Shown one piece after another: positions 43,101 through 64,000 of a stretch of 64,000 nucleotides of DNA. Below the pieces are notes generated by a model. That model saw nothing but the letters and a program-made list of their open reading frames with translations, was not told where the DNA came from and searched no databases. Position 1 is the first letter of the stretch. Each line of letters begins with the position of its first letter. This DNA is from Plumapathes pennacea (taxonomy: Eukaryota; Cnidaria; Anthozoa; Antipatharia; Myriopathidae), in the NCBI GenBank assembly GCA_964036295.1, contig OZ038467.1:1183501-1247500 (forward strand), given 5' to 3'. The position numbers and the translations under genes were made by a program.

Positions 43101-46100
43101 TCGTTTGTCACTATTACTCTGGGAGCATGTATGGAATACTTGGTGGTTTCTTCTTCAGTTGCGTTCATGCCTAAAATCCTTCAGTTTAAGTTCAGAATGC
43201 TCCCTGGTAGCGCGGCAATATTGTACGGCTTTGTCACTATCCCTGCCGCTCTTCTAGGAGAAGTTATAGGTGAGAATAGGTGATAGAACTTACGACGCAA
43301 TTGAGATGAAAATGCGGCTTTAGCTAGTACCGCGTAGCTAGTCTCTTAATGCTCCGTACTGTCTGTTCATTAGGGTGATGGGATTTGTTGACATTTACTT
43401 TGTTTTGCTGTTTCTCAGGAGCCTACATCGACTCCTGCAGGCTTTTTATTAGTCAGACTTCTCTTTTTCGTTGTTTTTCAGGGGCCTACATTAACAAAAG
43501 GTTAAACCTCAGCATGCGAGGAGCGGCCAAATTGTGTTTCATCGTCGCCATCTGTTCAGTCTTGAGTTCTTGTCTTCTCTACATCAACTGTGATCAGGTC
43601 GAGATCGTCGGTGTCAACCAGCCGTACATCAACAGGTACCTGAGTTCTCCCACGATCTCTAGGATTGACTCTACCTGGGGCCGGTTTTTCACAGCACGAT
43701 TAGGCTAATCTTGGATTAGGTCTAAACTTTCTTGTCATTTATAAGCCTCCGCAAAATGTGAAGGTTTCGTCCTGCAACGACTTCCTTCATACGTCTAGAA
43801 CAAGCTTCTTAATCCATGTTCAAACGAAACCTTGCTGTTTATTGACAGAGAGGTCTAGAGAAAGAATTTCGTTAATCCTGCTTTCGAACATCCAGGCCCT
43901 GGGTTTGATAAGCGCTCTGTTTTGTTTATTCGGCCGTAATGCAGTTTTGATGGATTGCATTGCAAATGATACTTCTTTTAAAAGAACTTTCTTGAGCCTT
44001 CATGTTGATTATCGAAAATATCACTTTTTTTGTTGTTTAGTTCGTCACCAGATGGCTTGTCTTCGCCGTGTAACAGTGTGTGTGACTGCTCTGGGGTGTC
44101 ATACGGCCCTGTGTGTGCTGAGGGATACACTTACTTCTCCCCGTGTCACGCCGGTTGCACCTCCGCAAATACAAGCCAGGTAAGGAGTGCAGCCGCGTTG
44201 AAAAAAAAAGAGAAAAAAAGCAAATAAGCAAACAAACAAACAAACAAACAAGTAAAACCTCTCTGTAGCCCTATAGAAATGGATACGAGATAAATGAGGT
44301 CAAATTCCAGCTGTGGCATGATAACCAACTGCTATGAGCCACTTTCACAGTCATGCGCAGTTCGCGAAGCGCAGATTTTCTGTTGGGCCACCAGACGATA
44401 AAACGTGGCGAGCAGATTGTATAACTTATTCTATGGTTCTGCTGCAATTATATAGACACAAATCCAAGCTCAGCAGAGAGATTTACTTGACAGACACTCG
44501 TTTATGTGTTTTCTAGTGCGCATGATTGTGGAAGTGGCTTATTTGAATGTACTCATTGATATGTTTTATTAGGAGCCCAGACATTTACTTTTACTTTTGA
44601 GAATTTGCCTTTGGATGTGAAAGGAGTAAGTCGCACTAAACCTTGTAATTTCTTCGACACAAGATTCATATTTTAAGGAAATTGGGTTTTGTCAGAGAGG
44701 TTCGTGAGACTGTATTTAACATCTCTGGGCTAGTTCGGAAAAATACTCTCCATGCAAGCTCTCATCACGTTCGATCTTTCTCTCTTTAGTCCTACTCCAA
44801 CTGTTCTTGTGTGGTCACCAAGAGTGAGGCATGGGGCGAGACCATTGCTGGTGCCTGTGGCGTGAACTGTGGAGTGAAACATATTTTGTTTATGGTGGTG
44901 GTTTTCCTGGTTTCATTCTTTACCTTTTTCCACTATACATCTGGAGTCGTCGTAACTCTCCGGTAAGAAATGCTGTGCAGTCATATGTTCAAAAGCATTG
45001 TTTTTTTCAGGGATCTGTTCTTATATTTGACCTTGCGTGCTTCAGTCGGTCTCAGTCCTCCTCCCTACCCTGCCGTCTGATCGCTCCACCAATCATCATC
45101 AAATTAGCATACGGTACCTGCTGGTTTCCTTCTGACTTGCAGGAGCATTCCTCTGAGTCAGCGGTCTTACGCTGTCGGCCTTCAGCTTATTTTGGTGCGT
45201 CTTCTGGGAGCCATTCCTGGTCCTATTGTGATGGGAAGCTTGATTGACAGGACGTGTATCTTGTGGAACATCAGGTGGGTAGAATTAGTGTGTCGTTGGC
45301 GTGCTGACAGGGTCGGAATGCTGCCCTTATGATTTCACCTTGTGCCCATTTCGTGCTGTTCATGAGTTCCTCATTATTCACTCGTATTAATTTCAGTCTC
45401 GTATCCGTATGTCTGTTGCATTACCTCAGTTTCTGTTTTTGTCTTCTTTCAAAGTAAATTTTATTTACCCTATTTCTTACATTGTTCTATTTGTTACAAT
45501 TTTTGATTGTGATAGATCGGAACAGGAACTCCAGGAAACCCTAATGGGCTTAGCGAGGAGAGCCCCCGTTTACAGTTCTAATAATACAACAGTATGACTA
45601 TCGTAGTCATTAATTTAACATAAATGTAATATAACTATGACGCATCAAATATTTCTTCCCGCGCGTGATTGGTGGAATCGTGACACGTGACCGAATAACG
45701 TCCGCTCCTGAGCTGAGCGGACGCTATTAGCAAATAGCCGCCGCCTGGCGAACTATCGCTGTTTATTGATAATATCCAAACACAGTTTCATCTCTTTAAT
45801 CACAAAAAACATAACGAGATGACTACCGAGAAGACATCAATTCATTGGTCAAAAAAGCTGAAAACGCTTCACAGTCCCCGCGCCATTATTTGCGCTGCGA
45901 GAGGAAATATTTAAAGCATAATAAAGACAACAAACTAGTTTCCTTTTTATATATTCAAATTTGTTAATTAATAGATGTAAAATGTAAGTTTTTAAATTCA
46001 GTTAGGGTTAGGGTTGGGGTTATTTTCTGTCTTTCCTCGCTTTCTATCCCTCTGACTCACCCTTCTGTCGTTTTCTGTTCTTGTCTTTCTTCTTTGTGAT

Positions 46101-46317
46101 ACTCTGTCTTTCCTTTCTTGTCAACAGTTGCGGTACAAAGAGCAGTTGCTTGGAGTACAACACTACACAGCTGACTGTGGTTGTGATCTGCCTTTTTGTA
46201 GCTTGCAAGTTTATCACCATGGTCTTCTTCTTTGTTACTTGGCTTCTGTGTCACAAAGAGCCTGACTACAAACCCGCAACCGATTTAAACCAAACAACCC
46301 GACCTGTTTACCTCTGA
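40145..46317 (+). CDS. SLCO4-like: OATP/SLCO organic anion transporter, copy 4
   Basis: Exons: 40145-40329, 41534-41967, 42499-42734, 43032-43269, 43482-43635, 44041-44179, 44790-44962, 45143-45274 and 46128-46317; about 626 residues. The start is ATG at 40145 (MAEQRSFSFGW). The signature is DQRWVGAWW; the Kazal-like loop lies in exons 6-7. Exon 3 is one codon longer than in copies 2/3 and exon 4 two codons shorter (EILEGYYRLSD against EVRDEEGYSKLSD), both in the cytoplasmic loop at that junction, with phase kept. The C-terminal tail is the longest of the array (KEPDYKPATDLNQTTRPVYL). A duplicated exon-5 start with its own acceptor lies 64 bases before the true exon 5. Intron 8 contains an insertion ending in TTAGGG-like repeats. 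Confidence 0.86.
40885..41265. mobile_element. PIF/Harbinger-like MITE
   Basis: 381 bp with about 40-bp inverted ends (GGTGCCTCCGGAGTTTCATC... at left, its complement at right, one or two mismatches) and a TAA duplication on each side (40882-40884, 41266-41268). A 3-bp TAA/TWA target suggests PIF/Harbinger. Located in intron 1 of copy 4; no coding capacity. Confidence 0.72.
41391..41412 (+). repeat. (TAA)n microsatellite
   Basis: Run of about seven TAA units in intron 1 of copy 4, followed by AAGACTTTATTTGAGTGTC. Such a tail can mark the 3' end of a truncated retroelement, but no retroelement sequence was recognised beside it. Confidence 0.6.
43418..43440 (+). other. Duplicated exon-5 start with a decoy splice acceptor
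   Basis: TTTCTCAG followed by GAGCCTACATCGACTCCTGC copies the acceptor and first codons of exon 5, then diverges; the complete exon 5 starts at 43482 after TTTTTCAG. Using the first acceptor would read into a different frame context, so it is probably a partial duplication, or a cryptic or alternative site. Confidence 0.65.
46002..46021 (+). repeat. Short telomere-like tract
   Basis: TTAGGGTTAGGGTTGGGGTT, about three units of the metazoan telomere repeat with one variant, at the right edge of an insertion (about 45535-46030) in intron 8 of copy 4. It may be a repair scar or chance. Confidence 0.5.
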
Positions 46318-47694
46318 CACATTTTTACGTACAACGTTCGTGATGTATGACTATGATAACTTCCGCTCAGTATTATTTTCCACTCTGTCAAGACCCAAGA
46401 ACGCGTTATAAACGTAGACCAGGAAAACGAGGTAGTTTCCGCTGTAAATTCGAGTATTGCACGCAAAAGGTCTGTACCAGAAAAAGAAACACTATTTCTG
46501 TGACTTATTTCGATTTCTTAGTTTGACTCTGAAAGATCGTCATGTTTGAGTAACACCGAGAACAGTCAAGGAGATTTTGGTCGGCCATATCTCAAAACGT
46601 GCAATAATGCGTGCGTTATCATTGCAAACTAATAAAAGTTTGGTAGGAATATTCGTTCTTCTGTTTGTTGGAAAGTTTTATAAATTATCCTTCTGTATTA
46701 CCGTTAAAGATGCCTGGCATCAAGATCATCAAGGAAGTGGCGAAGAATCCTCAATTACAAACAAATTGTTTCGTTTTACTCGCGTTTACAGCGGAAATCC
46801 TCTTATTATAAGATTTAGCTACAATCCTATGATCAAAATTGTTGGGACACTAATACAAACTCCTCTAAGTTTGAGTTTTTCGTGCCACCCCCTCCACCAC
46901 TTCAATGTTGAATTGCGCATCTTCCAGCCCTGAACCGACATTGATCGTGGGGAGGGCAGGGCAGGTGCCTTTTTGGCTAACTGGGTCAGCCAAAGTGGCT
47001 GATATCAAAGACATAGCACTATTATCAGGGTGTCCCAAAGACTTTTGTCCAGGATTGTGGATTAAAACTGCAGACTTCAAATTACAGTTTGCAGTTTTGT
47101 GCCTTTAATTTTCAATATTTATTTTTTGTGCTGATTGAAGTCCAAAATATTATTGCATTGATAGCGAGTTCTCCTTTTGTTTGTTTGCCATATTAACTTT
47201 CAACTGACGCTGACAGGGATCGAAATGAAGGCATCTTTATTGGTGCGTTACAACGCAGAACACGATGCAGTTAACATGCAGCAGTTTCCCGATCGCTGAG
47301 AGCCGGATATAAAGTTAACATCGTGTAATACATGTAAGCTCATTTGGTCGCCTTCTCTTGTTTCAAGGTTTCTACATGTTCCTCTATAGGCTGAGATTGA
47401 AAGTAAAATGTGACTGTAACTTCAGGGCTACAGCAGTACGATCTGCTACGTTGAGCTAAGCGTTCTTGCTTTGCGAGTCAAGTCGTCCAGTTATTAGTTC
47501 CTTCTATAGCTTGCTGACCGTAGAAAATTTCTAAGTAAGGCAAGCTTATCACGCGACGATTCTAACAAAACGTGACGTGTGAAGTCACGGTAACAGAATG
47601 CGTCGAGATGTCATGCCATCTGACCTGCTGTGCGATTTCAGCTACGATCCAGTGTTACTTTGGTAAACACGCAAATCCTGTATGTACAGCAGTG
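46318..47694. other. Spacer between OATP copies 4 and 5
   Basis: 3' flank of copy 4 and 5' flank of copy 5. Contains one MITE (46821-47058); otherwise no gene signal. Confidence 0.5.
46821..47058. mobile_element. MITE, ACAATCC family
   Basis: About 238 bp; ends ACAATCCT...GTTGGGACAC and GTGTCCCAAAGACTTTTGTC...GGATTGT are imperfect inverted copies of about 30 bp, related to the elements at 33861 and 35229. Confidence 0.55.
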
Positions 47695-50600
47695 ATGGCG
47701 GATCGAAGCAGTTTTTCCTTCGGCTGGTTCAGATTCCGTCCTAACTGGCTACAGTTCCTCAATACTCCGAAATGGTTTCTGTTTTTCTTGTGTCAGTATT
47801 TCTTCACGGAAAGTGTTATTATATTTGGCGTCTACCCTGGATCCATCAGTACAATCGAACGGAGGTTCGGCTTCACAAGGTGCGTTAATACAAGTTGTTT
47901 GTCATTTATCATCATACCGCATCGTATTAGTTCACTCCGTATGAATGAGCAGTGAGCACCGGTGTTTAGTTCCGATGCGACGCAGACTATATGAATCTTG
48001 TAACCCTAGAACATGGCGACTACAATTCGTGCGTTGTCTGTGAAGGCAGCCTTGTCACGTCGCATTTCAGATTTTAAACAAAAAAAAAACATAAACTTCA
48101 TTGGACTGTCAAAATAGAAAAGGAACCGAGAATACAAGATAAAACAACAGGTCTGACCAATTCATTATTGAGCCATCGACTTTTATCCATGCTGATCACG
48201 ATCTTAAGCAATGGCTATTGGTTCATTTTAAGAAACCGAATGAAGAATTCCTTACTTTACAGCATGTCCATGGCGAAGAGTTTAGTTTGTCGGCGTGGCG
48301 TGTTGGCGACTGCAGTATAATTATTTATTTAGTGTTTCTCCGCCCTAGGGGGAAGTGTTGCTCACGCTATGGGTTCCTGACCCTATCAAACACAAACCCT
48401 TGGGGTCGAATTTACAATAACTTGCGTACGAATGGAAATGTTCGTAAGTATGACTTACGCCCTTCGTTCGAACGCAGATTTCGTGAATTTGGCCCCTGCT
48501 TTATTCCCTTTCCAAGACTAATCACTTCAACTTGTTACATGACTTATTGTTGTCTATTTTCAAGTGGATCAAAGAACGTACCTCATTACTTTGCTGCAGT
48601 GATAACAAAAGGCAGCACGGTCGCCGCCTCGCGAGAGTCTAGCACTAATGACAATTATTTAAGTGTGAGGACTGATCAAAAAAGTAGTTCTCACAACAAC
48701 AGCATTGATTCGTCTATTTTCTTCTAAAATGGTTGAGAGAATTTAAACAAGAGAAACTTTTTTTTCCCCTGTAGTTGGATGACCGGTTGGTTGACCAGCA
48801 GTTTCGACATCTGCGCCACGATCCTGACCCCGCTGGTCAGCTATGCTGGAGGCTCACGCAAGAAGCCGGTCTTCTGTGGAATCGCTTTCTTCATTATGGG
48901 ACTTGGATTTTTCGTGATGCTCCTTCCGCACGTGTTGAGTGATAAATACCAAGCGGGACAAGTTTCAGCTAATGTCTCTGGTCTCGCTCTGTGTGCCGCA
49001 AATCAGACGAGTTCCATCACAGATGTTTGTGATAAGGATTCCGTCACAGGAAATCTGTGGTACTACAGCCTTTTTATCCTTGGAATGGTTCTTGCTGGAG
49101 TGGGGACCACGCCCATGTATACTTTGGGCGTTCCCTATATAGATGAAAATGTGAAACCGAAAGCATTATCGATGTACGTGGGAATTGTAGAGGCCTGTGG
49201 TATTTTGGGTACGTATTAAGCATGGTTTTCACTAGCACATAAGCACAAAGCACAAGAGAACAACAGTGGCGACATAAGCATAAGCAACGAACGTGTCTGT
49301 CCCTTATGTTCTTGTTTATGTTCTTGTCTATGCGCTAAAAAAACAATTTTAGTGCGCATGCGTGTAGTCATAGCAGCGGTTATGGAAATATTACATGTTG
49401 TCTGTCAATCTCTGAGCATAGATAAAAACCCTGGTGCCAGAGCGGTTTTCAATTGGCAGGTGAAAGCGAGCGCGTTATGCTTGTCATCATTTAGCATTTT
49501 ACGTGAGTTTCTTCTCACTGTCTACTTATTATAATTATTTTTTTTAATGGTCAGGTGCCGTAGTTGGTTTTGTGGTCATTTTCCTATTCTTATCGATTTT
49601 CGTCGACCTTGGTGTGCAGACGTCACTTACACCGGACGACCAGCGCTGGGTAGGAGCCTGGTGGCTAGGGTTTGCCATATTTGGCGCAATGTGCGTATTC
49701 TGGAGTTTGTGGCTGCTCGGTTTTCCCAAACAGCTCCCTGGCACCAGAGAACGCCGGGAAGTAGAAATGACGGATAAGACCGATCACGACGTAGGTCACT
49801 CTCTTTCAACATATAGACAAACTGTAGACAAAATTTAGATAGTGTTATCTGGTTCCAGAGTCAAGAGAAAATTTGGACTAAGTCATTCATTTATTCTCTT
49901 CCTCTCTTTGCAGGAGGGAGTTTGCGAAAGTGATGGCTTCTCCAAGCTGTCAGACATCCCAAAAGCCACCAAGTTGGTATTTTCTCGGCTGCCATTTGTC
50001 ACTATTACTCTTGGAGGGTGTATGGAAAGCTTGGTGATTTCTTCTTCAGTTGCGTTCATGCCTAAAATCCTTCAGTTCAAGTTCAGAATGCTGCCTGGTA
50101 GCGCGGCAATATTGAACGGCTGCGTGAGCATCGCTGCCGCTCTTATGGGAAATCTTATCGGTGAGGATAAAAATGAACCTGAAAGCAAATGAACAATTAG
50201 TCCCACAAAGAAAATTCCATTCCAATCCTATTTGTTTTGCCTTTGACCTGCGTACCGTGTGATGGCGATTTGGCGGAGCTTTGCTGACTTTCAAATCAAT
50301 TTGAGTCGATCGTGAGTTATGTTTTGCCAATATAATGTAAGTCAATTTGGCTTGCTGAATTCTTTGGTGTGTTGTTGAAATGGATTGAAGTTTACACTCT
50401 TTTTCCGTTGTTTTGCAGGAGCCTACATTAACAAAAAGTTAAACCTCAGTATGCGAGGAGCGGCCAAAATGTGCTTCATCGTCTCCATCTTTGGATTTGT
50501 TACATCCTGTTTCCTCTACATCAACTGTGATCAGGTCGAGATTGTCGGTGTAAACCAGCCGTACATCAACAGGTACTTAAAGTGCACCTCTTGGATTTGA

Positions 50601-52031
50601 TAATCATTACAGATAATTTGGGTGGCTGTTTAAGATTGTTTGTAAAAGAAATTCGTGTTTGCCGTAGCTCAGTTGCAGTTTAGGACCTAAAGCAATACTA
50701 AGGTGTGTTTTGCAACAGGTACTTGTGCGTTTCGTCCAACGTTTCTGGATCCCGTTCTTCATAGAATGGAGAAAGAAACTGGCTTGGGATACCTCGAGTC
50801 CTTAGTTGTGGGATTGCGAGAATAACGCACTATTTTTGTTTAGTTCGTCACCAGACGGCTTGTCTTCGCCGTGTAACAGTGTGTGTGACTGCTCTGGAGT
50901 GTCATACAGCCCTGTGTGTGCGGAGGGATACACTTACTTCTCCCCGTGTCACGCCGGTTGCTCCTCCGCAAACGCAAGTCAGGTAAGGAGTGGAGCTTTG
51001 AAAGATTAACTTATAAACTATCTGAAGCGCTGTCAAATGAAAATGTTTCTCATCGTGTTTGATCTTTATCTCTCCAGTCCTACTCCAACTGCTCTTGTGT
51101 GGTCATTAAGAGTGAGGCATGGGGCGAGGCTACTTCTGCTGCATGTGGCGTGAACTGTGGAGTGAAACTTATCTTGTTTATGGTGGTGCTGTTTCTGGCT
51201 TCATTCTTTACTTTTCTTCACAATACCCCTGGAGTGATCGTCACTCTCCGGTAAGACACGTTGTACTCACATATAGAGAGATTGTGCGCAAACGGTCGCG
51301 TCAAATCCTCTTTTAACTTCGCGTGCTAACCTGACCCCGCATGAAAAAGTAATGACTCGTGTGTTTCTGTTCGTCTGCGAACTATTAATTTCAAGCAGGT
51401 GCGCGTTTTAGCATCCACCAATCAGGGGCGAGTACTCTCACGTGATAGGGTATTCCAAAATGTTTCTAGAGCCTCTCTGAAAATCACTTTTGTGAATGGG
51501 AGCTTCCTGTTAAAAACACGTTTAATATCCCTTTTTTCTGACAAATTTTTGTGACTTGCAGGAGTAACTCTCTACCTCAAAGGTCTTACGCTGTGGGAAT
51601 TCAGATGATTTTGATGCGTCTACTCGGATCCATTCCTGGTCCTGTTGTCATGGGAAGTTTGATTGACAGGACATGTATCTTATGGAACATCAGGTAAAGG
51701 GCGGCACAACTGATTACTGGCCTATTCTCCCCTTTTTTAGTCTCTTCTTGTTGTTTTCTTGTCAATGGAAATTGAATTTTATTTTCTGTCCTGAGTTTTC
51801 TCGCCGGCTTTCTCTGTTCTATTTCTTTTCCCCTTTCTAATTTCTTGATCATTTTCTAACGTGTTCTTGTCTTTCGTCAACAGTTGCGGTAAAAATAGCA
51901 ATTGTTTGGAGTACAACACTACACAGTTGACTTTGGTTATTACGTGCCTTTTTGCGTCCTGCAAAGCTGTCACCGTGGTCTTCTTCTGCGTCACTTGGCT
52001 CCTGTGTCGACAAAAAATTGATTCAAACTAA
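47695..52031 (+). CDS. SLCO4-like: OATP/SLCO organic anion transporter, copy 5
   Basis: Exons: 47695-47879, 48775-49208, 49555-49790, 49914-50160, 50419-50572, 50844-50982, 51078-51250, 51562-51693 and 51884-52031; about 615 residues, GT-AG throughout. The start is ATG at 47695 (MADRSSFSFGW). The signature DQRWVGAWW and Kazal-like loop (CNSVCDCSG, PVCAEGYTYFSPCHAGC) are intact. It is among the more diverged intact copies: ESVIIFGVYPG in exon 1, GVCESDGFSKLSD at the exon 3/4 loop, SNSLPQRSYAVG in exon 8 and a short tail (LLCRQKIDSN). It has compact introns with little transposon load. It is the last gene before the satellite block, about 420 bp from its first recognisable repeat. Confidence 0.87.
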
Positions 52032-52448
52032 CAAACTTCTGTTTTATTTTGCTTTCGCTTCCAAACTCACATCGATGTAAAATTACCGACGTCACTCCCG
52101 TTCGCACTCCTCCTTCAGCATCCGCTTCCCCGTTTCCACTACAACACAAACTCCCGCTCCCATTGCCCCATTCCAATTCCCTTTCCCACACCAACTAACA
52201 TCATGAACTAACATCCTTGTAAATATATCGCCCCCAATTCCGCTCCATATCCCACTCTCATCCCCGCAACTACATCCCTGTAAGTACTATGCTTACATTG
52301 ATGTGAGTGCGAAAGTGAGAGTGCTAGCGGAAGTGGGGGTGAGTTTACCGCTCTCACTCCAACCCCACTCCCAATCCTGTATACATGTAGATAGAGCACT
52401 TACAGGAAAACGAGTGCGGAGTGTGAGGATATGAGAGTGGGAATCCTT
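52032..52448. other. Low-complexity spacer between OATP copy 5 and the satellite
   Basis: Presumed 3' flank of copy 5 followed by C/T-rich words (CACTCCC, CCGCTCCC) and, further right, their G/A-rich complements (GTGAGAGTG, GAAGTGGGGGTG), so the region can partly fold back. No gene seen. Confidence 0.5.
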
Positions 52449-54915
52449 ATCTTGCTATATCTCGTCAACGGCTGAAGTAAAGTACGACAAATTTATTGAA
52501 CAAAGTCTCGTCATAGTTCCAGGTAAGTTTCCTGAATATTTCAAAACTTTTAAAACTTTGCTCAAAATCTGTTATTTTTGGCTAAAAGTACGGACTATAG
52601 CCTTAGTTACCATTATTTCAAAAATTGGCCATTTTTGACCTATTCTCAGAATCGCATGAAACTTTCAGAAAATGTTCCTAGGAGTATAACAAGTTTTGAC
52701 ATAACAAATGTGATATTTAACAAAGAAAGTCGCGAGTAATAAGAGTTGCAAATCAGCCCGAGAAACGTCACCCTTTTCAAACAAAAGAACATAATTATGC
52801 GTAATTTTATTTGCTATATCTCGTCAACGGCGGAAGATAAATAAGACAACAAATTTATTGCAAAAGGTCTCGTTATAGTCCCAGAAAGGTTTTCTCAAAG
52901 TTTCAAGAGTTTTGAAATTTTGCTCAAAATCGGCCATTTTTGACAAAAAAACATGCAGTATAGCCTTACTATTATTTCAAAAATTGGTCATTTTTGGCGT
53001 ATTCTCAGAATCACTCAAAATTTTCAGGAAATGTTCTTAGGAGCATAGAGAAAGTTTTGACCTAACAAGTATGATATTTCATAGAACGGTTCGCAAGTAA
53101 CAAGAGCTGCAAATCAACCCAAAAAACGTCACCCTTTTCAAACAAAAGAGCATAATTATGCGTAGTTTTCTTGTTATATCTCGTGTACGGGAGAAGAAAT
53201 ATAGGACAAATTTATTGCAAAAGGTCTCGTTATAATCCCAAGAAGGTTTCCTAAAAGTTTCAAAAGTTTTGAAATTTTCTTCAAAATCGGCTATTTGTGA
53301 CAAAAAACATCTCAGAATCGCACAAAAATTTCAGGAAATGTTCCTGGGACTATGCAGACGGTTTTTGCATAGTTTTTGTAAACTTTAAGCGCACGCGTCG
53401 TGAGAAATTAGAGCAAATCATCGACTAATTAAAACATCACACCTTTCAAAGTTTTAAGCGGTTTTGCTGTTATATCTCGCCAACGGATGAAGATAAATAA
53501 AGCAAATGTATTATAGAAAGTCTTCTTATAGTCCCAGGAAGGTTTCATAAAAGTTTCAAGGGTTTTCAATTTTTGGCCAAAATCGGCAAAAAACCCTGGG
53601 CTATAGCCTTAGTATTTTGTCAAAATCCGGTCATTTTTCGATCATCTCAGAATCGCATGAAACTTTCAGGAAATGTTCCTGGGTCTATGCCGACGGTTTT
53701 TGCATAGCTTTTGTAAACTTTAAGCCCTCGTGTCGTGAGAAATTAGAGCAAATCATCGACTAATTAAAACATCACACCTTTCAAAGTTTTAGGCGGTTTT
53801 TTCCGATATAACTCGCCAACGGATGAAGATAAATAAAGCAAATGTATTATAGAAAGTCTTCTTATAGTCCCAGGAAGGTTTCCTAAAAGTTTCAAGGGTT
53901 TTCAATTTTTGGCCAAAATCGGCAAAAAAACCCTGGGCTATAGCCTTAGTATTTTGTCAAAATCCGGTCATTTTTCGACCATCTCAGAATCGCATGAAAC
54001 TTTCAGGAAATGTTCCTGGGACTATGCCGACGGATTTTGCATAGTTCTTGTAAACTTTAAGCCCTCGCGTCCTGAGAAATTAGAGCAAATCATCGACTAA
54101 TTAAAACATCACACCTTTCAAAGTTTTAAGCGGTTTTGCTGTTATATCTCGCCAACGGATGAAGATAAATAAAGCAAATGTATTATAGAAAGTCTTTTTA
54201 TAGTCCCAAGAAGGTTTCCTAAAAGTTTCAAGGGTTTTCAATTTTTGGCCAAAATCGGCAAAAAACCCTGGGCTATAGCCTTAGTATTTTGTCAAAATCC
54301 GGTCATTTTTCGACCATCTCAGAATCGCATGAAACTTTCAGGAAATGTTCCTGGGACTATGCCGACGGATTTTGCATAGTTTTTGTAAACTTTAAGCGCA
54401 CGCGTCGTGAGAAATTAGAGCAAATCATCGACTAATTAAAACATCACACCTTTCAAAGTTTTAGGCGGTTTTCCCGATATAACTCGCCAAAGGATGAAGA
54501 TAAATAAAGCAAATGTATTATAGAAAGTCTTCTTATAGTCCCAGGAAGGTTTCCTAAAAGTTTCAAGGGTTTTCAATTTTTGGCCAAAATCGGCAAAAAA
54601 CCCTGGGCTATAGCCTTAGTATTTTGTCAAAATCCGGTCATTTTTCGACCATCTCAGAATCGCATGAAACTTTCAGGAAATGTTCCTGGGACTATGCCGA
54701 CGGATTTTGCATAGTTCTTGTAAACTTTAAGCCCTCGCGTCCTGAGAAATTAGAGCAAATCATCGACTAATTAAAACATCACACCTTTCAAAGTTTTAGG
54801 CGGTTTTTTCCGATATAACTCGCCAACGGATGAAGATAAATAAAGCAAATGTATTATAGAAAGTCTTCTTATAGTCCCAGGAAGGTTTCCTAAAAGTTTC
54901 AAGGGTTTTCAATTT

Positions 54916-56592
54916 TTGGCCAAAATCGGCAAAAAAACCCTGGGCTATAGCCTTAGTATTTTGTCGAAATCCGGTCATTTTTCGACCATCTCAGAATCGC
55001 ATGAAACTTTCAGGAAATGTTCCTGGGACTATACCGACGGATTTTGCATAGTTTTTGTAAACTTTAAACGCACGCGTCGTGAGAAATTAGAGCAAATCAT
55101 CGACTAATTAAAACATCACACCTTTCAAAGTTTTAGGCGGTTTTGCTGTTATATCTCGCCAACGGATGAAGATAAATAAAGCAAATGTATTATAGAAAGT
55201 CTTTTTATAGTCCCAAGAAGGTTTCCTAAAAGTTTCAAGGGTTTTCAATTTTTGGCCAAAATCGGCAAAAAACCCTGCGCTATAGCCTTAGTATTTTGTC
55301 AAAATCCGGTCATTTTTCGACCATCTCAGAATCGCATGAAACTTTCAGGAAATGTTCCTGGGACTATGCCGACGGATTTTGCATAGTTTTTGTAAACTTT
55401 AAGCGCACGCGTCGTGAGAAATTAGAGCAAATCATCGACTAGTTAAAACATCACACCTTTCAAAGTTTTAGGCGGTTTTCCCGATATAACTCGCCAAAGG
55501 ATGAAGATAAATAAAGCAAATGTATTATAGAAAGTCTTCTTATAGTCCCAGGAAGGTTTCCTAAAAGTATCAAGGGTTTTCAATTTTTGGCCAAAATCGG
55601 CAAAAAACCCTGGGCTATAGCCTTAGTATTTTGTCAAAATCCGGTCATTTTTCGACCATCTCAGAATCGCATGAAACTTTCAGGAAATGTTCCTGGGACT
55701 ATGCCGACGGATTTTGCATAGTTTTTGTAAACTTTAAGCGCACGCGTCGTGAGAAATTAGAGCAAATCATCGACTAATTAAAACATCACACCTTTCAAAG
55801 TTTTAGGCGGTTTTCCCGATATAACTCGCCAAAGGATGAAGATAAATAAAGCAAATGTATTATAGAAAGTCTTCTTATAGTCCCAGGAAGGTTTCCTAAA
55901 AGTATCAAGGGTTTTCAATTTTTGGCCAAAATCGGCAAAAAAACCCTGAGCTATAGCCTTAGTATTTTGTCAAAATCCGGACATTTTTCGATCATCTCAG
56001 AATCGCATGAAACTTTCAGGAAATGTTCCTGGGACTATGCCGACGGATTTTGCATAGTTTTTGTAAACTTTAAGCGCACGCGTCGTGAGAAATTAGAGCA
56101 AATCATCGACTAATTAAAACATCACACCTTTCAAAGTTTTAGGCGGTTTTGCTGTTATATCTCGCCAACGGATGAAGATAAATAAAGCAAATGTATTATA
56201 GAAAGTCTTCTTATAGTCCCAGGAAGGTTTCCTAAAAGTTTCAAGGATTTTCAATTTTTGGCCAAAATCGGCAAAAAACCCTGGGCTATAGCCTTAGTAT
56301 TTTGTCAAAATCCGGTCATTTTTCGATCATCTCAGAATCGCATGAAACTTTCAGGAAATGTTCCTGGGACTATGCCGACGGATTTTGCATAGTTTTTGTA
56401 AACTTTAAACGCACGCGTCGTGAGAAATTAGAGCAAATCATCGACTAATTAAAACAGCACACCTTTCAAAGTTTTAAGCGGTTTTGCTGTTATATCTCGC
56501 CAACGGATGAAGATAAATAAAGCAAATGTATTATAGAAAGTCTTCTTATAGTCCCAGGAAGGTTTCCTAAAAGTTTCAAGGGTTTTCAATTT
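54916..56592. repeat. Five-monomer higher-order repeat, first copy
   Basis: 1677 bp made of five distinguishable monomers (m1-m5). Markers: m1 has ACTATACCGACGG; m2 has GACTAGTTAAAAC and usually CCCTGCGCTATAG; m4 has CCCTGAGCTATAG; m5 has AAACAGCACACC. It is followed by four monomers (56593-57934) that do not follow this order. Confidence 0.8.
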
Positions 56593-57934
56593 TTGGCGAA
56601 AGTCGGCAAAAAAACCCTGGGCTATAGCCTTAGTATTTTGTCAAAATCCGGTCATTTTTCGACCATCTCAGAATCGCATGAAACTTTCAGGAAATGTTCC
56701 TGGGTCTATGCCGACGGTTTTTGCATAGCTTTTGTAAACTTTAAGCCCTCGTGTCGTGAGAAATTAGAGCAAATCATCGACTAATTAAAACATCACACCT
56801 TTCAAAGTTTTAAGCGGTTTTGCTGTTATATCTCGCCAACGGATGAAGATAAATAAAGCAAATGTATTATAGAAAGTCTTCTTATAGTCCCAGGAAGGTT
56901 TCCTAAAAGTTTCAAGGGTTTTCAATTTTTGGCCAAAATCGGCAAAAAACCCTGGGCTATAGCCTTAGTATTTTGTCAAAATCCGGTCATTTTTCGACCA
57001 TCTCAGAATCGCATGAAACTTTCAGGAAATGTTCCTGGGACTATGCCGACGGATTTTGCATAGTTTTTGCAAACTTTAAGCGCACGCGTCGTGAGAAATT
57101 AGAGCAAATCATCGACTAATTAAAACATCACACCTTTCAAAGTTTTAGGCGGTTTTCCCGATATAACTCGCCAACGGATGAAGATAAATAAAGCAAATGT
57201 ATTATAGAAAGTCTTCTTATAGTCCCAGGAAGGTTTCATAAAAGTTTCAAGGGTTTTCAATTTTTGGCCAAAATCGGCAAAAAACCCTGGGCTATAGCCT
57301 TAGTATTTTGTCAAAATCCGGTCATTTTTCGACCATCTCAGAATCGCATGAAACTTTCAGGAAATGTTCCTGGGACTATGCCGACGGATTTTGCATAGTT
57401 TTTGTAAACTTTAAGCGCACGCGTCGTGAGAAATTAGAGCAAATCATCGACTAATTAAAACATCACACCTTTCAAAGTTTTAGGCGGTTTTCCCGATATA
57501 ACTCGCCAACGGATGAAGATAAATAAAGCAAATGTATTATAGAAAGTCTTCTTATAGTCTCAGGAAGGTTTCCTAAAAGTTTCAAGGGTTTTCAATTTTT
57601 GGCCAAAATCGGCAAAAAACCCTGGGCTATAGCCTTAGTATTTTGTCAAAATCCGGTCATTTTTCGACCATCTCAGAATCGCATGAAACTTTCAGGAAAT
57701 GTTCCTGGGACTATGCCGACGGATTTTGCATAATTCTTGTAAACTTTAAGCCCTCGCGTCCTGAGAAATTAGAGCAAATCATCGACTAATTAAAACATCA
57801 CACCTTTCAAAGTTTTAGGCGGTTTTTTCCGATATAACTCGCCAACGGATGAAGATAAATAAAGCAAATGTATTATAGAAAGTCTTCTTATAGTCCCAGG
57901 AAGGTTTCCTAAAAGTTTCAAGGGTTTTCAATTT

Positions 57935-59612
57935 TTGGCCAAAATCGGCAAAAAAACCCTGGGCTATAGCCTTAGTATTTTGTCAAAATCCGGTCATTTT
58001 TCGACCATCTCAGAATCGCATGAAACTTTCAGGAAATGTTCCTGGGACTATACCGACGGATTTTGCATAGTTTTTGCAAACTTTAAACGCACGCGTCGTG
58101 AGAAATTAAAGCAAATCATCGACTAATTAAAACATCACACCTTTCAAAGTTTTAAGCGGTTTTGCTGTTATATCTCGCCAACGGATGAAGATAAATAAAG
58201 CAAATGTATTATAGAAAGTCTTTTTATAGTCCCAAGAAGGTTTCCTAAAAGTTTCAAGGGTTTTCAATTTTTGGCCAAAATCGGCAAAAAACCCTGGGCT
58301 ATAGCCTTAGTATTTTGTCAAAATCCGGTCATTTTTCGACCATCTCAGAATCGCATGAAACTTTCAGGAAATGTTCCTGGGACTATGCCGACGGATTTTG
58401 CATAGTTTTTGTAAACTTTAAGCGCACGCGTCGTGAGAAATTAGAGCAAATCATCGACTAGTTAAAACATCACACCTTTCAAAGTTTTAGGCGGTTTTCC
58501 CGATATAACTCGCCAAAGGATGAAGATAAATAAAGCAAATGTATTATAAAAAGTCTTCTTATAGTCCCAGGAAGGTTTCCTAAAAGTATCAAGGGTTTTC
58601 AATTTTTGGCCAAAATCGGCAAAAAACCCTGGGCTATAGCCTTAGTATTTTGTCAAAATCCGGTCATTTTTCGACCATCTCAGAATCGCATGAAACTTTC
58701 AGGAAATGTTCCTGGGACTATGCCGACGGATTTTGCATAGTTTTTGTAAACTTTAAGCGCACGCGTCGTGAGAAATTAGAGCAAATCATCGACTAATTAA
58801 AACATCACACCTTTCAAAGTTTTAGGCGGTTTTCCCGATATAACTCGCCAAAGGATGAAGATAAATAAAGCAAATGTATTATAGAAAGTCTTCTTATAGT
58901 CCCAGGAAGGTTTCCTAAAAGTTTCAAGGGTTTTCAATTTTTGGCCAAAATCGGCAAAAAAACCCTGAGCTATAGCCTTAGTATTTTGTCAAAATCCGGT
59001 CATTTTTCGACCATCTCAGAATCGCATGAAACTTACAGGAAATGTTCCTGGGACTATGCCGACGGATTTTGCATAGTTTTTGTAAACTTTAAGCGCACGC
59101 GTCGTGAGAAATTAGAGCAAATCATCGACTAATTAAAACATCACACCTTTCAAAGTTTTAGGCGGTTTTGCTGTTATATCTCGCCAACGGATGAAGATAA
59201 ATAAAGCAAATGTATTATAGAAAGTCTTCTTATAGTCCCAGGAAGGTTTCCTAAAAGTTTCAAGGATTTTCAATTTTTGGCCAAAATCGGCAAAAAAACC
59301 CTGGGCTATAGCCTTAGTATTTTGTCAAAATCCGGTCATTTTTCGATCATCTCAGAATCGCATGAAACTTTCAGGAAATGTTCCTGGGACTATGCCGACG
59401 GATTTTGCATAGTTTTTGTAAACTTTAAGCGCACGCGTCGTGAGAAATTAGAGCAAATCATCGACTAATTAAAACATCACACCTTTCAAAGTTTTGGGCG
59501 GTTTTCCCGATATAACTCGCCAACGGATGAAGATAAATAAAGCAAATGTATTATAGAAAGTCTTCTTATAGTCCCAGGAAGGTTTCATAAAAGTTTCAAG
59601 GGTTTTCAATTT
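57935..59612. repeat. Higher-order repeat, second copy (variant)
   Basis: Monomers m1-m4 in order, then an m5-like unit lacking the CAGCACACC marker, then one extra monomer (59613-59948) before the next unit. Confidence 0.7.
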
Positions 59613-59948
59613 TTGGCCAAAATCGGCAAAAAACCCTGGGCTATAGCCTTAGTATTTTGTCAAAATCCGGTCATTTTTCGACCATCTCAGAATCGCATGA
59701 AACTTTCAGGAAATGTTCCTGGGACTATGCCGACGGATTTTGCATAGTTTTTGTAAACTTTAAGCCCTCGCGTCGTGAGAAATTAGAGCAAATCATCGAC
59801 TAATTAAAACATCACACCTTTCAAAGTTTTAGGCGGTTTTTTCCGATATAACTCGCCAACGGATGAAGATAAATAAAGCAAATGTATTATAGAAAGTCTT
59901 CTTGTAGTCCCAGGAAGGTTTCCTAAAAGTTTCAAGGGTTTTCAATTT

Positions 59949-62900
59949 TTGGCCAAAATCGGCAAAAAAACCCTGGGCTATAGCCTTAGTATTTTGTCAA
60001 AATCCGGTCATTTTTCGACCATCTCAGAATCGCATGAAACTTTCAGGAAATGTTCCTGGGACTATACCGACGGATTTTGCATAGTTTTTGTAAACTTTAA
60101 ACGCACGCGTCGTGAGAAATTAGAGCAAATCATCGACTAATTAAAACATCACACCTTTCAAAGTTTTAGGCGGTTTTGCTGTTATATCTCGCCAACGGAT
60201 GAAGATAAATAAAGCAAATGTATTATAGAAAGTCTTTTTATAGTCCCAAGAAGGTTTCCTAAAAGTTTCAAGGGTTTTCAATTTTTGGCCAAAATCGGCA
60301 AAAAACCCTGCGCTATAGCCTTAGTATTTTGTCAAAATCCGGTCATTTTTCGACCATCTCAGAATCGCATGAAACTTTCAGGAAATGTTCCTGGGACTAT
60401 GCCGACGGATTTTGCATAGTTTTTGTAAACTTTAAGCGCACGCGTCGTGAGAAATTAGAGCAAATCATCGACTAGTTAAAACATCACACCTTTCAAAGTT
60501 TTAGGCGGTTTTCCCGATATAACTCGCCAAAGGATGAAGATAAATAAAGCAAATGTATTATAGAAAGTCTTCTTATAGTCCCAGGAAGGTTTCCTAAAAG
60601 TATCAAGGGTTTTCAATTTTTGGCCAAAATCGGCAAAAAACCCTGGCCTATAGCCTTAGTATTTTGTCAAAATCCGGTCATTTTTCGACCATCTCAGAAT
60701 CGCATGAAACTTTCAGGAAATGTTCCTGGGACTATGCCGACGGATTTTGCATAGTTTTTGTAAACTTTAAGCGCACGCGTCGTGAGAAATTAGAGCAAAT
60801 CATCGACTAATTAAAACATCACACCTTTCAAAGTTTTAGGCGGTTTTCCCGATATAACTCGCCAAAGGATGAAGATAAATAAAGCAAATGTATTATAGAA
60901 AGTCTTCTTATAGTCCCAGGAAGGTTTCCTAAAAGTTTCAAGGGTTTTCAATTTTTGGCCAAAATCGGCAAAAAAACCCTGAGCTATAGCCTTAGTATTT
61001 TGTCAAAATCCGGACATTTTTCGATCATCTCAGAATCGCATGAAACTTTCAGGAAATGTTCCTGGGACTATGCCGACGGATTTTGCATAGTTTTTGTAAA
61101 CTTTAAGCGCACGCGTCGTGAGAAATTAGAGCAAATCATCGACTAATTAAAACATCACACCTTTCAAAGTTTTAGGCGGTTTTGCTGTTATATCTCGCCA
61201 ACGGATGAAGATAAATAAAGCAAATGTATTATAGAAAGTCTTCTTATAGTCCCAGGAAGGTTTCCTAAAAGTTTCAAGGATTTTCAATTTTTGGCCAAAA
61301 TCGGCAAAAAACCCTGGGCTATAGCCTTAGTATTTTGTCAAAATCCGGTCATTTTTCGATCATCTCAGAATCGCATGAAACTTTCAGGAAATGTTCCTGG
61401 GACTATGCCGACGGATTTTGCATAGTTTTTGTAAACTTCAAACGCACGCGTCGTGAGAAATTAGAGCAAATCATCGACTAATTAAAACAGCACACCTTTC
61501 AAAGTTTTAAGCGGTTTTGCTGTTATATCTCGCCAACGGATGAAGATAAATAAAGCAAATGTATTATAGAAAGTCTTCTTATAGTCCCAGGAAGGTTTCC
61601 TAAAAGTTTCAAGGGTTTTCAATTTTTGGCCAAAATCGGCAAAAAAACCCTGGGCTATAGCCTTAGTATTTTGTCAAAATCCGGTCATTTTTCGACCATC
61701 TCAGAATCGCATGAAACTTTCAGGAAATGTTCCTGGGACTATACCGACGGATTTTGCATAGTTTTTGTAAACTTTAAACGCACGCGTCGTGAGAAATTAG
61801 AGCAAATCATCGACTAATTAAAACATCACACCTTTCAAAGTTTTAGGCGGTTTTGCTGTTATATCTCGCCAACGGATGAAGATAAATAAAGCAAATGTAT
61901 TATAGAAAGTCTTTTTATAGTCCCAAGAAGGTTTCCTAAAAGTTTCAAGGGTTTTCAATTTTTGGCCAAAATCGGCAAAAAACCCTGCGCTATAGCCTTA
62001 GTATTTTGTCAAAATCCGGTCATTTTTCGACCATCTCAGAATCGCATGAAACTTTCAGGAAATGTTCCTGGGACTATGCCGACGGATTTTGCATAGTTTT
62101 TGTAAACTTTAAGCGCACGCGTCGTGAGAAATTAGAGCAAATCATCGACTAGTTAAAACATCACACCTTTCAAAGTTTTAGGCGGTTTTCCCGATATAAC
62201 TCGCCAAAGGATGAAGATAAATAAAGCAAATGTATTATAGAAAGTCTTCTTATAGTCCCAGGAAGGTTTCCTAAAAGTATCAAGGGTTTTCAATTTTTGG
62301 CCAAAATCGGCAAAAAACCCTGGTTTATAGCCTTAGTATTTTGTCAAAATCCGGTCATTTTTCGACCATCTCAGAATCGCATGAAACTTTCAGGAAATGT
62401 TCCTGGGACTATGCCGACGGATTTTGCATAGTTTTTGTAAACTTTAAGCGCACGCGTCGTGAGAAATTAGAGCAAATCATCGACTAATTAAAACATCACA
62501 CCTTTCAAAGTTTTAGGCGGTTTTCCCGATATAACTCGCCAAAGGATGAAGATAAATAAAGCAAATGTATTATAGAAAGTCTTCTTATAGTCCCAGGAAG
62601 GTTTCCTAAAAGTTTCAAGGGTTTTCAATTTTTGGCCAAAATCGGCAAAAAAACCCTGAGCTATAGCCTTAGTATTTTGTCAAAATCCGGACATTTTTCG
62701 ATCATCTCAGAATCGCATGAAACTTTCAGGAAATGTTCCTGGGACTATGCCGACGGATTTTGCATAGTTTTTGTAAACTTTAAGCGCACGCGTCGTGAGA
62801 AATTAGAGCAAATCATCGACTAATTAAAACATCACACCTTTCAAAGTTTTAGGCGGTTTTGCTGTTATATCTCGCCAACGGATGAAGATAAATAAAGCAA

Positions 62901-64000
62901 ATGTATTATAGAAAGTCTTCTTATAGTCCCAGGAAGGTTTCCTAAAAGTTTCAAGGATTTTCAATTTTTGGCCAAAATCGGCAAAAAACCCTGGGCTATA
63001 GCCTTAGTATTTTGTCAAAATCCGGTCATTTTTCGATCATCTCAGAATCGCATGAAACTTTCAGGAAATGTTCCTGGGACTATGCCGACGGATTTTGCAT
63101 AGTTTTTGTAAACTTCAAACGCACGCGTCGTGAGAAATTAGAGCAAATCATCGACTAATTAAAACAGCACACCTTTCAAAGTTTTAAGCGGTTTTGCTGT
63201 TATATCTCGCCAACGGATGAAGATAAATAAAGCAAATGTATTATAGAAAGTCTTCTTATAGTCCCAGGAAGGTTTCCTAAAAGTTTCAAGGGTTTTCAAT
63301 TTTTGGCCAAAATCGGCAAAAAAACCCTGGGCTATAGCCTTAGTATTTTGTCAAAATCCGGTCATTTTTCGACCATCTCAGAATCGCATGAAACTTTCAG
63401 GAAATGTTCCTGGGACTATACCGACGGATTTTGCATAGTTTTTGTAAACTTTAAACGCACGCGTCGTGAGAAATTAGAGCAAATCATCGACTAATTAAAA
63501 CATCACACCTTTCAAAGTTTTAGGCGGTTTTGCTGTTATATCTCGCCAACGGATGAAGATAAATAAAGCAAATGTATTATAGAAAGTCTTTTTATAGTCC
63601 CAAGAAGGTTTCCTAAAAGTTTCAAGGGTTTTCAATTTTTGGCCAAAATCGGCAAAAAACCCTGCGCTATAGCCTTAGTATTTTGTCAAAATCCGGTCAT
63701 TTTTCGACCATCTCAGAATCGCATGAAACTTTCAGGAAATGTTCCTGGGACTATGCCGACGGATTTTGCATAGTTTTTGTAAACTTTAAGCGCACGCGTC
63801 GTGAGAAATTAGAGCAAATCATCGACTAGTTAAAACATCACACCTTTCAAAGTTTTAGGCGGTTTTCCCGATATAACTCGCCAAAGGATGAAGATAAATA
63901 AAGCAAATGTATTATAGAAAGTCTTCTTATAGTCCCAGGAAGGTTTCCTAAAAGTATCAAGGGTTTTCAATTTTTGGCCAAAATCGGCAAAAAACCCTGG
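59949..64000. repeat. Higher-order repeat, regular block
   Basis: Units start at 59949, 61626 and 63303, exactly 1677 bp apart, each with m1-m5 in the same order; the last is cut by the window edge. Units differ at only a few positions, for example CCCTGGCCTATAG against CCCTGGTTTATAG in m3. Confidence 0.88.

What the first reader, a model, noticed from the sequence alone, without database searches (positions are those of the whole stretch)
52449..64000. ~335-bp satellite with a 1677-bp five-monomer higher-order repeat next to genes
Diverged monomers at the gene-facing edge give way to near-identical higher-order units toward the right, the age gradient typical of centromeric or pericentromeric satellites described in mammals. 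It begins only ~420 bp after an intact transporter gene. Such organisation is little described in cnidarians and could mark a centromere, a heterochromatic knob or a subtelomere.
Basis: partly seen in the sequence, partly recalled or inferred. Interest (0 to 1): 0.72.

Follow-up and report, generated by a model that had tools for sequence, protein, structure and literature searches.

The report
Chromosome-end satellite relative, nested between genes
The repeated DNA at the right edge of the window is real: it is an inland colony, about 20,000 bases long, of a widespread satellite family with a sister version at many chromosome ends, and here a young form of the repeat lies inside an older, related array between ordinary genes.

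Summary
A core of ~52 monomers of 335 bp (97.1% alike) is flanked on BOTH sides by an older ~355-bp relative (~74% to the core). The 1677-bp unit is real (0 of 2000 reorderings) but clean for only four consecutive units (60020-66728) plus one more.

It is not a centromere or subtelomere here: it lies 1.24 Mb inside a 23.4-Mb contig, between OATP and GH65/RIMBP2 genes. The family is dispersed (~4.2 Mb, rough estimate). A sister subfamily (88% to this core) was found at 10 of 24 ends of the 12 large contigs, + at left ends and - at right ends.

The 'age gradient' is nesting: left and right old edges are each other's closest listed relatives, and joined they make one old monomer in register with ~14 bp missing. 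The monomer is an inverted dimer; its mirrored AGGAANNNTTCCT boxes lie in the best-conserved stretches, yet no compensatory changes maintain the dyad. Old copies were seen at 6 of 15 loci.

Precedent: Rsp-like satellite inside 1.688 arrays (Drosophila). New family, known kind of behaviour.

The parts
52447..53305 (+). Left remnant of the older ~355-bp array: partial L0 (52447-52637), L1 (52644-52998), truncated L2 (53003-53305)
   Evidence: TRF period 359; HMM tiling; L1 and L2 fall in the old clade of the monomer tree; L1 is 93.1% to the first old monomer right of the core, against 82% for the best other-locus match listed (40 of 1573 candidates scored)
53308..64000 (+). Young 335-bp core: 31 complete monomers and most of a 32nd lie in the window; it continues to window-equivalent 71122 in L009
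   Evidence: TRF; tiling; 52 monomers in all, mean pairwise identity 0.971; a core 26-mer occurs 51 times in the genome, all at C6:1236994-1254126
60020..64000 (+). Clean 1677-bp five-monomer higher-order repeat; units start at 60020, 61697, 63374 (and 65051 outside the window)
   Evidence: lag-5 identity 99.4-100% for the monomers starting in this stretch; type string ABCDE x4 over monomers 20-39
53333..53345 (+). First of 55 exact AGGAANNNTTCCT boxes in the window, all in the core: 32 at phase ~26-38 and 23 at the mirrored phase ~230-242
   Evidence: 55 matches against 0.11 expected in shuffles; phases 7-36 are the best-conserved 30 bp between old and young copies, 0 of 2000 permutations, and the mirror 221-250 is next (0.77-0.80)
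48737..52030 (+). OATP/SLCO transporter exons left of the array (neighbour; gene start not determined)
   Evidence: PF03137 E=1.1e-37 and 2.2e-12 on two exons; last exon and stop read by eye

Best explanation
This is an interstitial array of a dispersed satellite DNA family, a sister subfamily of which lies at many chromosome ends of this genome. At this spot a private array of an older ~355-bp relative already stood between genes. A young 335-bp copy or short array entered one old monomer in the same orientation, with about 14 bp of that monomer missing at the join, and was then amplified locally by unequal exchange to ~52 copies, leaving array-private variants and a patchy five-monomer higher-order repeat. 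Entry was most likely an ectopic recombination or end-joining event helped by sequence shared by old and young monomers; the donor may have been an extrachromosomal circle of repeats. Shown: extent, dispersal, privacy of this array, the chromosome-end subfamily, old/young/old nesting and the in-register empty site. Inferred: donor, circle, unequal exchange. No function for the host is needed or shown.
For: Midpoint-rooted tree of 236 monomers: an old clade of 17 and a young clade of 219; core monomers of most arrays form their own clade; left and right old edges of this locus group together (support 0.975), as do those of the C4:10.63-Mb array (0.984). Old edges: L1-R1 93.1%, L2-R2 88.4%, R0-R2 89.7%, consistent with an A-B-A-B order running across the core; best other-locus match listed 82%. 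L2+R0 joined aligns along one old monomer with 14 bp missing at the join, 18 bp shorter overall. At C4 both old/young junctions are in register, the right one with a short loss. No match to the family model in 74 kb of flanking sequence. This core is 94-96% to the cores of eleven other loci but 74% to its own edges. Chromosome-end subfamily: 28-mer 842 + / 1529 -, control 0; 29 of 29 hits of a rare variant at chromosome ends, + left and - right.
Against: Old-clade copies were seen at only 6 of 15 loci, so nesting is not the rule. Old copies of different loci are only 66-81% alike, about as far from each other as from the young core, and an old-type 22-mer was found only here and at C5, so the old clade is loose and rests on a midpoint-rooted tree (supports 0.838 and 0.966). 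The right junction here is not at a matching phase of the young monomer (core stops at phase ~152) and a 0.2-kb insert sits near it. No direct evidence of circles. Some edges elsewhere are inverted relative to their core (C1a, C1c, C6c, C2sub).
Confidence: 0.72

Rival explanations
1. One array ageing in place: the core is kept alike by unequal crossing-over and the edges are decayed copies of the same repeat (classical satellite model).
For: In-register junctions at C4; edges on both sides; old copies of different loci are loosely related, 66-81%; layered arrays of this look are known from human centromeres (passages of PMC12321929).
Against: Left and right edges here are 93% and 88-90% alike monomer by monomer yet ~74% to the core; independent decay of core copies would not give that. 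The core is 94-96% to the cores of eleven other loci. The old type also makes arrays elsewhere (324 matches from 40 scored of 1573 candidates).
Confidence: 0.14
2. Centromeric or pericentromeric satellite; in a bold form, the chromosome-end arrays are telocentric centromeres.
For: Higher-order repeat, inverted-dimer monomer with conserved boxes, and likeness of the end subfamily between chromosomes; dyads are predicted in a wide variety of centromeres (passages of PMC12321929).
Against: This array is ~20 kb among genes; C5 and C6 carry the subfamily at both ends; C9-C12 showed none at the two or three points probed per end; 4 CENP-B-box-like matches in the window against 8.2 expected, none in the array part.
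Confidence: 0.06
3. Tandem repeats carried inside a transposon (Helitron-like or terminal-inverted-repeat element) that moves the array.
For: Dispersal in both orientations; short arrays near genes; inverted copies at some edges; precedent in Crassostrea gigas Helitrons (passages of PMC10048060).
Against: Flanks of 10 loci compared all against all share only scattered repeats at unequal distances from the arrays; the 87-aa monomer frame tested has no Pfam match.
Confidence: 0.07

Closest known systems
Rsp-like satellite inserted within existing 1.688 arrays, Drosophila simulans and D. mauritiana X euchromatin (PMC7919458, passages read; the primary paper it cites, Sproul et al. 2020, is not held)
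   Same: A satellite recently expanded into euchromatin and landed inside existing arrays of another satellite
   Different: Here old and young are relatives (~74%), arrays lie on many chromosomes, and a sister subfamily sits at chromosome ends
Layered alpha-satellite higher-order arrays of human centromeres (PMC12321929, passages)
   Same: Young homogeneous higher-order core flanked by older divergent monomers
   Different: ~20 kb against 340 kb to 4.8 Mb; not one site per chromosome; the core is closer to cores at other loci than to its own edges
Subtelomeric satellites in general (search listings; passages of the review PMC9498494, added nothing specific)
   Same: Arrays at ends of several chromosomes, alike between chromosomes
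   Different: Only the sister subfamily (88% to the window core) is terminal; the window array is interstitial
Tribolium madens macro-dyad satellites (PMC13081366, abstract)
   Same: Inverted symmetry as a feature of satellite organisation
   Different: Here the main dyad is inside each 335-bp monomer (two ~167-bp arms), not across tens of kb

Membership tests
Euchromatic dispersed satellite DNA | Short tandem arrays at many loci, here near genes | tested here: met
   10 loci including this one, more listed; genes on both sides tested for this array only
Euchromatic dispersed satellite DNA | Array-private homogenisation | tested here: met
   tree (core monomers of most arrays, not of C2sub); private 26-mer, 51 of 51 at this locus
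Young satellite inserted in an existing satellite array (Rsp-like into 1.688 type) | Old array continues in register across the young core | tested here: met
   this locus and C4; old copies at 6 of 15 loci
Young satellite inserted in an existing satellite array (Rsp-like into 1.688 type) | Extrachromosomal circular intermediates | not testable with these tools
   needs reads or circle enrichment
Subtelomeric satellite | This array lies beside a telomere | tested here: not met
   C6:1235947 of 23374169
Subtelomeric satellite | Family members at ends of several chromosomes, alike between them | tested here: met
   10 of 24 ends; 95.8-98.8% to one consensus at the probes that hit; telomeric repeats read within ~10 kb of the satellite at 4 of the 10 (C3 left, C5 left, C5 right, C6 left)
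Centromeric higher-order satellite | Higher-order repeat of diverged monomers | tested here: met
Centromeric higher-order satellite | One dominant long array per chromosome | tested here: not met
   inland arrays of ~2-20 kb among those read whole, and both ends of C5 and C6 occupied; no genome-wide array map was possible
Centromeric higher-order satellite | CENP-B box (motif recalled) | tested here: not met
   none at <=1 mismatch in the array part of the window
Centromeric higher-order satellite | CENP-A enrichment | not testable with these tools
   no chromatin data
Transposon-borne tandem repeat (Helitron or TIR element) | Common element ends at fixed distance from arrays | tested here: not met
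   10 loci, flanks all against all
Structure-maintained dyad | Compensatory changes keep the inverted arms paired | tested here: not met
   over 18 consensuses compared with this core (3 of 22 dropped), 15 double changes were seen against ~17 expected, 6 of them still paired, where a third would pair by chance

The most novel reading that the evidence does not exclude
The satellite spreads by homing to its own older relatives: the mirrored, slow-evolving box (GAAACTTTCAGGAAATGTTCCTGG and its inverted partner) is a protein-binding or break-prone site kept across old and young types, chromosome ends are the reservoir where the family is homogenised and oriented, and inland old arrays are landing sites. 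Satellite turnover would then be a targeted, self-favouring process rather than chance, and could also serve pairing of chromosome ends.
Probability: 0.12. Interest if true: 0.72.

Novelty: new member of a known kind. Interest (0 to 1): 0.42.

Why it matters
It gives a readable example of how a satellite moves: the pre-insertion site can be seen directly, and one family links chromosome ends, inland arrays and an older layer in one genome. It also warns that 'diverged edge, uniform core, higher-order repeat' is not by itself a centromere signature. The conserved mirrored box is a concrete, testable candidate for what is bound, or for where old and young copies recombine.

Tried and rejected
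Centromere reading: rejected for this locus (size, gene neighbours, position, no CENP-B-box-like match in the window part). Transposon-carried array: flanks of 10 loci compared all against all showed no common ends. Selected cruciform or hairpin: no excess of compensatory change, so the dyad is read as a relic of an inverted duplication, though it is far above chance (score 74.5; 0 of 300 dinucleotide shuffles, max 48.5). Coding function of the 87-aa frame seen in some monomers: no Pfam match for the one tested. Naming the phylum by the GFP family: no match, and none in the tool's 14 controls either, so uninformative.
Full report
WHAT IS THERE. The window is G000:C6:1183501-1247500 of a 290-Mb assembly in 24 contigs. 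Tandem Repeats Finder finds 52447-53307 (period 359) and 53308-64000 (period 335, 31.9 copies, 96% matches). Sequence to the right shows the array going on to window-equivalent 72437: core monomers to 71122, split at about 70832-71045 by a ~0.2-kb insert with TTAA on both sides (read by eye), then three full and one partial copy of the old ~355-bp type at 71162-72437. The core has 52 full monomers with mean pairwise identity 0.971.

HIGHER-ORDER REPEAT. On 49 core monomers, lag-5 identity is 98.27% against 97.09% (sd 0.16) in reordered monomers, 0 of 2000 reaching it; lag 10 also 0 of 2000. Monomer types read ABCDE four times in a row over 60020-66728, and once at 54987-56663; the remainder is scrambled. 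Unit starts 60020, 61697, 63374 and 65051 are 1677 bp apart. Two of the four units and part of a third lie inside the window.

NEIGHBOURS. Left: exons with OATP Pfam hits, last stop near 52030. Right: GH65 hydrolase exons, the first one tested 2.6 kb beyond the array, then RIMBP2-like, fn3 and SH3 exons. The array sits among genes, 1.24 Mb from the start of a 23.4-Mb contig.

THE FAMILY GENOME-WIDE. A 401-bp query matched 132 places at nine other loci (9 of 1297 first-look candidates were scored, so a lower bound). The 20-mer GGAAATGTTCCTGGGACTAT has 4254 + 3658 hits at <=1 mismatch (controls 0 and 0) and 11520 + 10801 at <=3 (controls 3 and 5). The mirrored half of the monomer also counts at <=3 mismatches. 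In the loci I read there is one such hit per 190 bp of satellite, giving a rough 4.2 Mb, 1.5% of the genome. This core is 94-96% to the core consensuses of eleven other loci and 85-88% to the types at C1 start, C2 end, C1:7.9 Mb and part of C6:3.33 Mb; monomers within young arrays are 90-98% alike. A 26-mer of this core occurs 51 times in the genome, all here.

OLD AND YOUNG. A midpoint-rooted tree of 236 copies longer than ~240 bp splits into an old clade of 17 and a young clade of 219, one of the latter a long-branch outlier. The old clade holds the edge copies of this array (left and right together, 0.975), those of the C4:10.63-Mb array (left and right together, 0.984), and copies at C6:1.51 Mb (both sides), C5, C6:3.33 Mb and C2 end: 6 of 15 loci. 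The other nine showed none; short diverged edge pieces at C1:26.95 Mb and C3 (73-74% to the core) were too short for the tree and stay unplaced, and the diverged edges of C1:3.83 Mb fall in the young clade. Against a tight old family: old copies of different loci are only 66-81% alike, and an old-type 22-mer was found at <=3 mismatches only here (6) and at C5 (1). The old type also makes arrays elsewhere (324 matches from 40 scored of 1573 candidates).

THE EMPTY SITE. Left edge L1 is 93.1% to right edge R1; left L2 is 88.4% and the right fragment R0 89.7% to R2 (R0 is also 91.4% to L0). The best match of R1 at any other locus listed is 82%. Joined, L2 and R0 run along one old monomer in register, with 14 bp missing at the join and 18 bp less overall than R1. 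So the old array was continuous here and the young core lies inside one of its monomers. At C4 the old/young changes on both sides are in register, the left one within sequence shared by both types next to the box, the right one with a short loss. Here the right junction is not at a matching phase of the young monomer, so end-joining or later loss is likely on that side. No match to the family model was found in 74 kb of flanking sequence.

CHROMOSOME ENDS. A variant first read at C1:37001-41000 is 99% identical in consensus to the main type at the C2 right end and 88% to the window core; one C2 stretch also holds an inverted and an odd monomer. Its 28-mer has 842 + and 1529 - exact copies, control 0; the first 100 listed all lie in C1:8061-48914. 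Small probes (20 each; 9; read) found this subfamily at 95.8-98.8% at the left ends of C1, C3, C5, C6, all +, and the right ends of C2, C5, C6, C7, C8, all -. A rarer variant of the 28-mer gave 29 hits, all listed: 1 at C1 left, 1 at C5 left (both +) and 27 at C4:26.889-27.148 Mb of 27.196 Mb (all -). That makes 10 of 24 ends of the 12 large contigs, 10 of 10 with the same orientation to the end. Telomeric repeats were read close by at four: C3 left (repeats 1-481, satellite from 803), C5 left (repeats at 5 kb, satellite at 9 kb), C5 right (satellite 5 kb from the end, repeats in the last 1.5 kb) and C6 left (repeats at 2.5 kb, satellite at 8 kb). At C2 and C4 the satellite lies inward and probes nearer the end had none. 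The other 14 ends were probed at two or three points each (two of those points read N), so absence is not shown; five of them have telomeric repeats (C7, C8, C9 left; C3, C10 right). The 12 small contigs had none at the single point probed in each.

THE MONOMER. The 335-bp unit is 62.6% self-complementary, two ~167-bp arms; alignment score 74.5 against a maximum of 48.5 in 300 dinucleotide shuffles. Changes between arrays are not compensatory: 15 double changes against ~17 expected, 6 of 15 still paired, where about a third would be by chance (18 consensuses, 3 dropped). I read the dyad as the relic of an inverted duplication. Yet phases 7-36 are the best-conserved stretch between old and young types (0.87 against 0.59 overall, 0 of 2000 permutations) and the mirror 221-250 is next (0.77-0.80) (through a name mismatch 16 of 17 old copies were used and one was left among the young). 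The box AGGAANNNTTCCT occurs 55 times in the window, 0.11 expected. It could be a bound site or simply the tract through which old and young copies recombine; nothing here decides.

HOW IT WORKS, AND LIMITS. Best reading: a young subfamily entered an older array through ectopic recombination or end-joining, then grew by unequal exchange. Nesting and privacy are shown; donor, any circular intermediate and the exchange are inferred. The nearest precedent I saw in print is Rsp-like satellite inserted within existing 1.688 arrays in Drosophila (PMC7919458, passages). Human centromere layers (PMC12321929, passages), Tribolium dyads (PMC13081366, abstract) and dispersed satellites (PMC10048060, passages) give context.

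Noticed in passing
L009:6831-7046 (window-equivalent 70831-71046): A ~0.2-kb insert with near-perfect inverted ends (TGTTACAGTGGTCGATT...AATCGACCAGTGTAACA) and TTAA on both sides splits a satellite monomer; part of it matches C1:2.728 Mb at 82%. Looks like a small DNA transposon.
   Followed up: partly
L018:5654-7328 and 7665-10000 (C9:3.45 Mb): A different satellite, period ~650 bp, surrounds remnants of the 335-bp type; it also has a self-inverted segment (71% over 386 columns), so inverted architecture recurs in a satellite the family model does not match.
   Followed up: no
L113:1-802 (C3 left end) and L114 last 300 bases (C7 right end): C3 begins with CCCTAA repeats followed head-to-head by TTAGGG repeats, then a short sequence part of which also appears, inverted, at the C7 right end (by eye).
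   Followed up: no
G000:C2:37908048-37908095: A short TTAGGG tract 33 kb inside the C2 right end, with satellite inward of it and none at the two points probed outward: possible misjoin or healed end.
   Followed up: no
window 44828-52030: Probably two OATP-type genes in tandem: similar last exons within 46012-46317 and at ~51880-52030 (by eye).
   Followed up: no
window 3-4289: A 1428-residue open frame that looks like coiled coil, running off the window start, coincides with the strong purine skew of the first 4 kb.
   Followed up: no
L016/L017 (C1:3.830-3.839 Mb): Array edges are inverted relative to the core, and two of the inversion points lie near phase ~296-300, a dyad centre of the monomer, as if flips happen there.
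   Followed up: no
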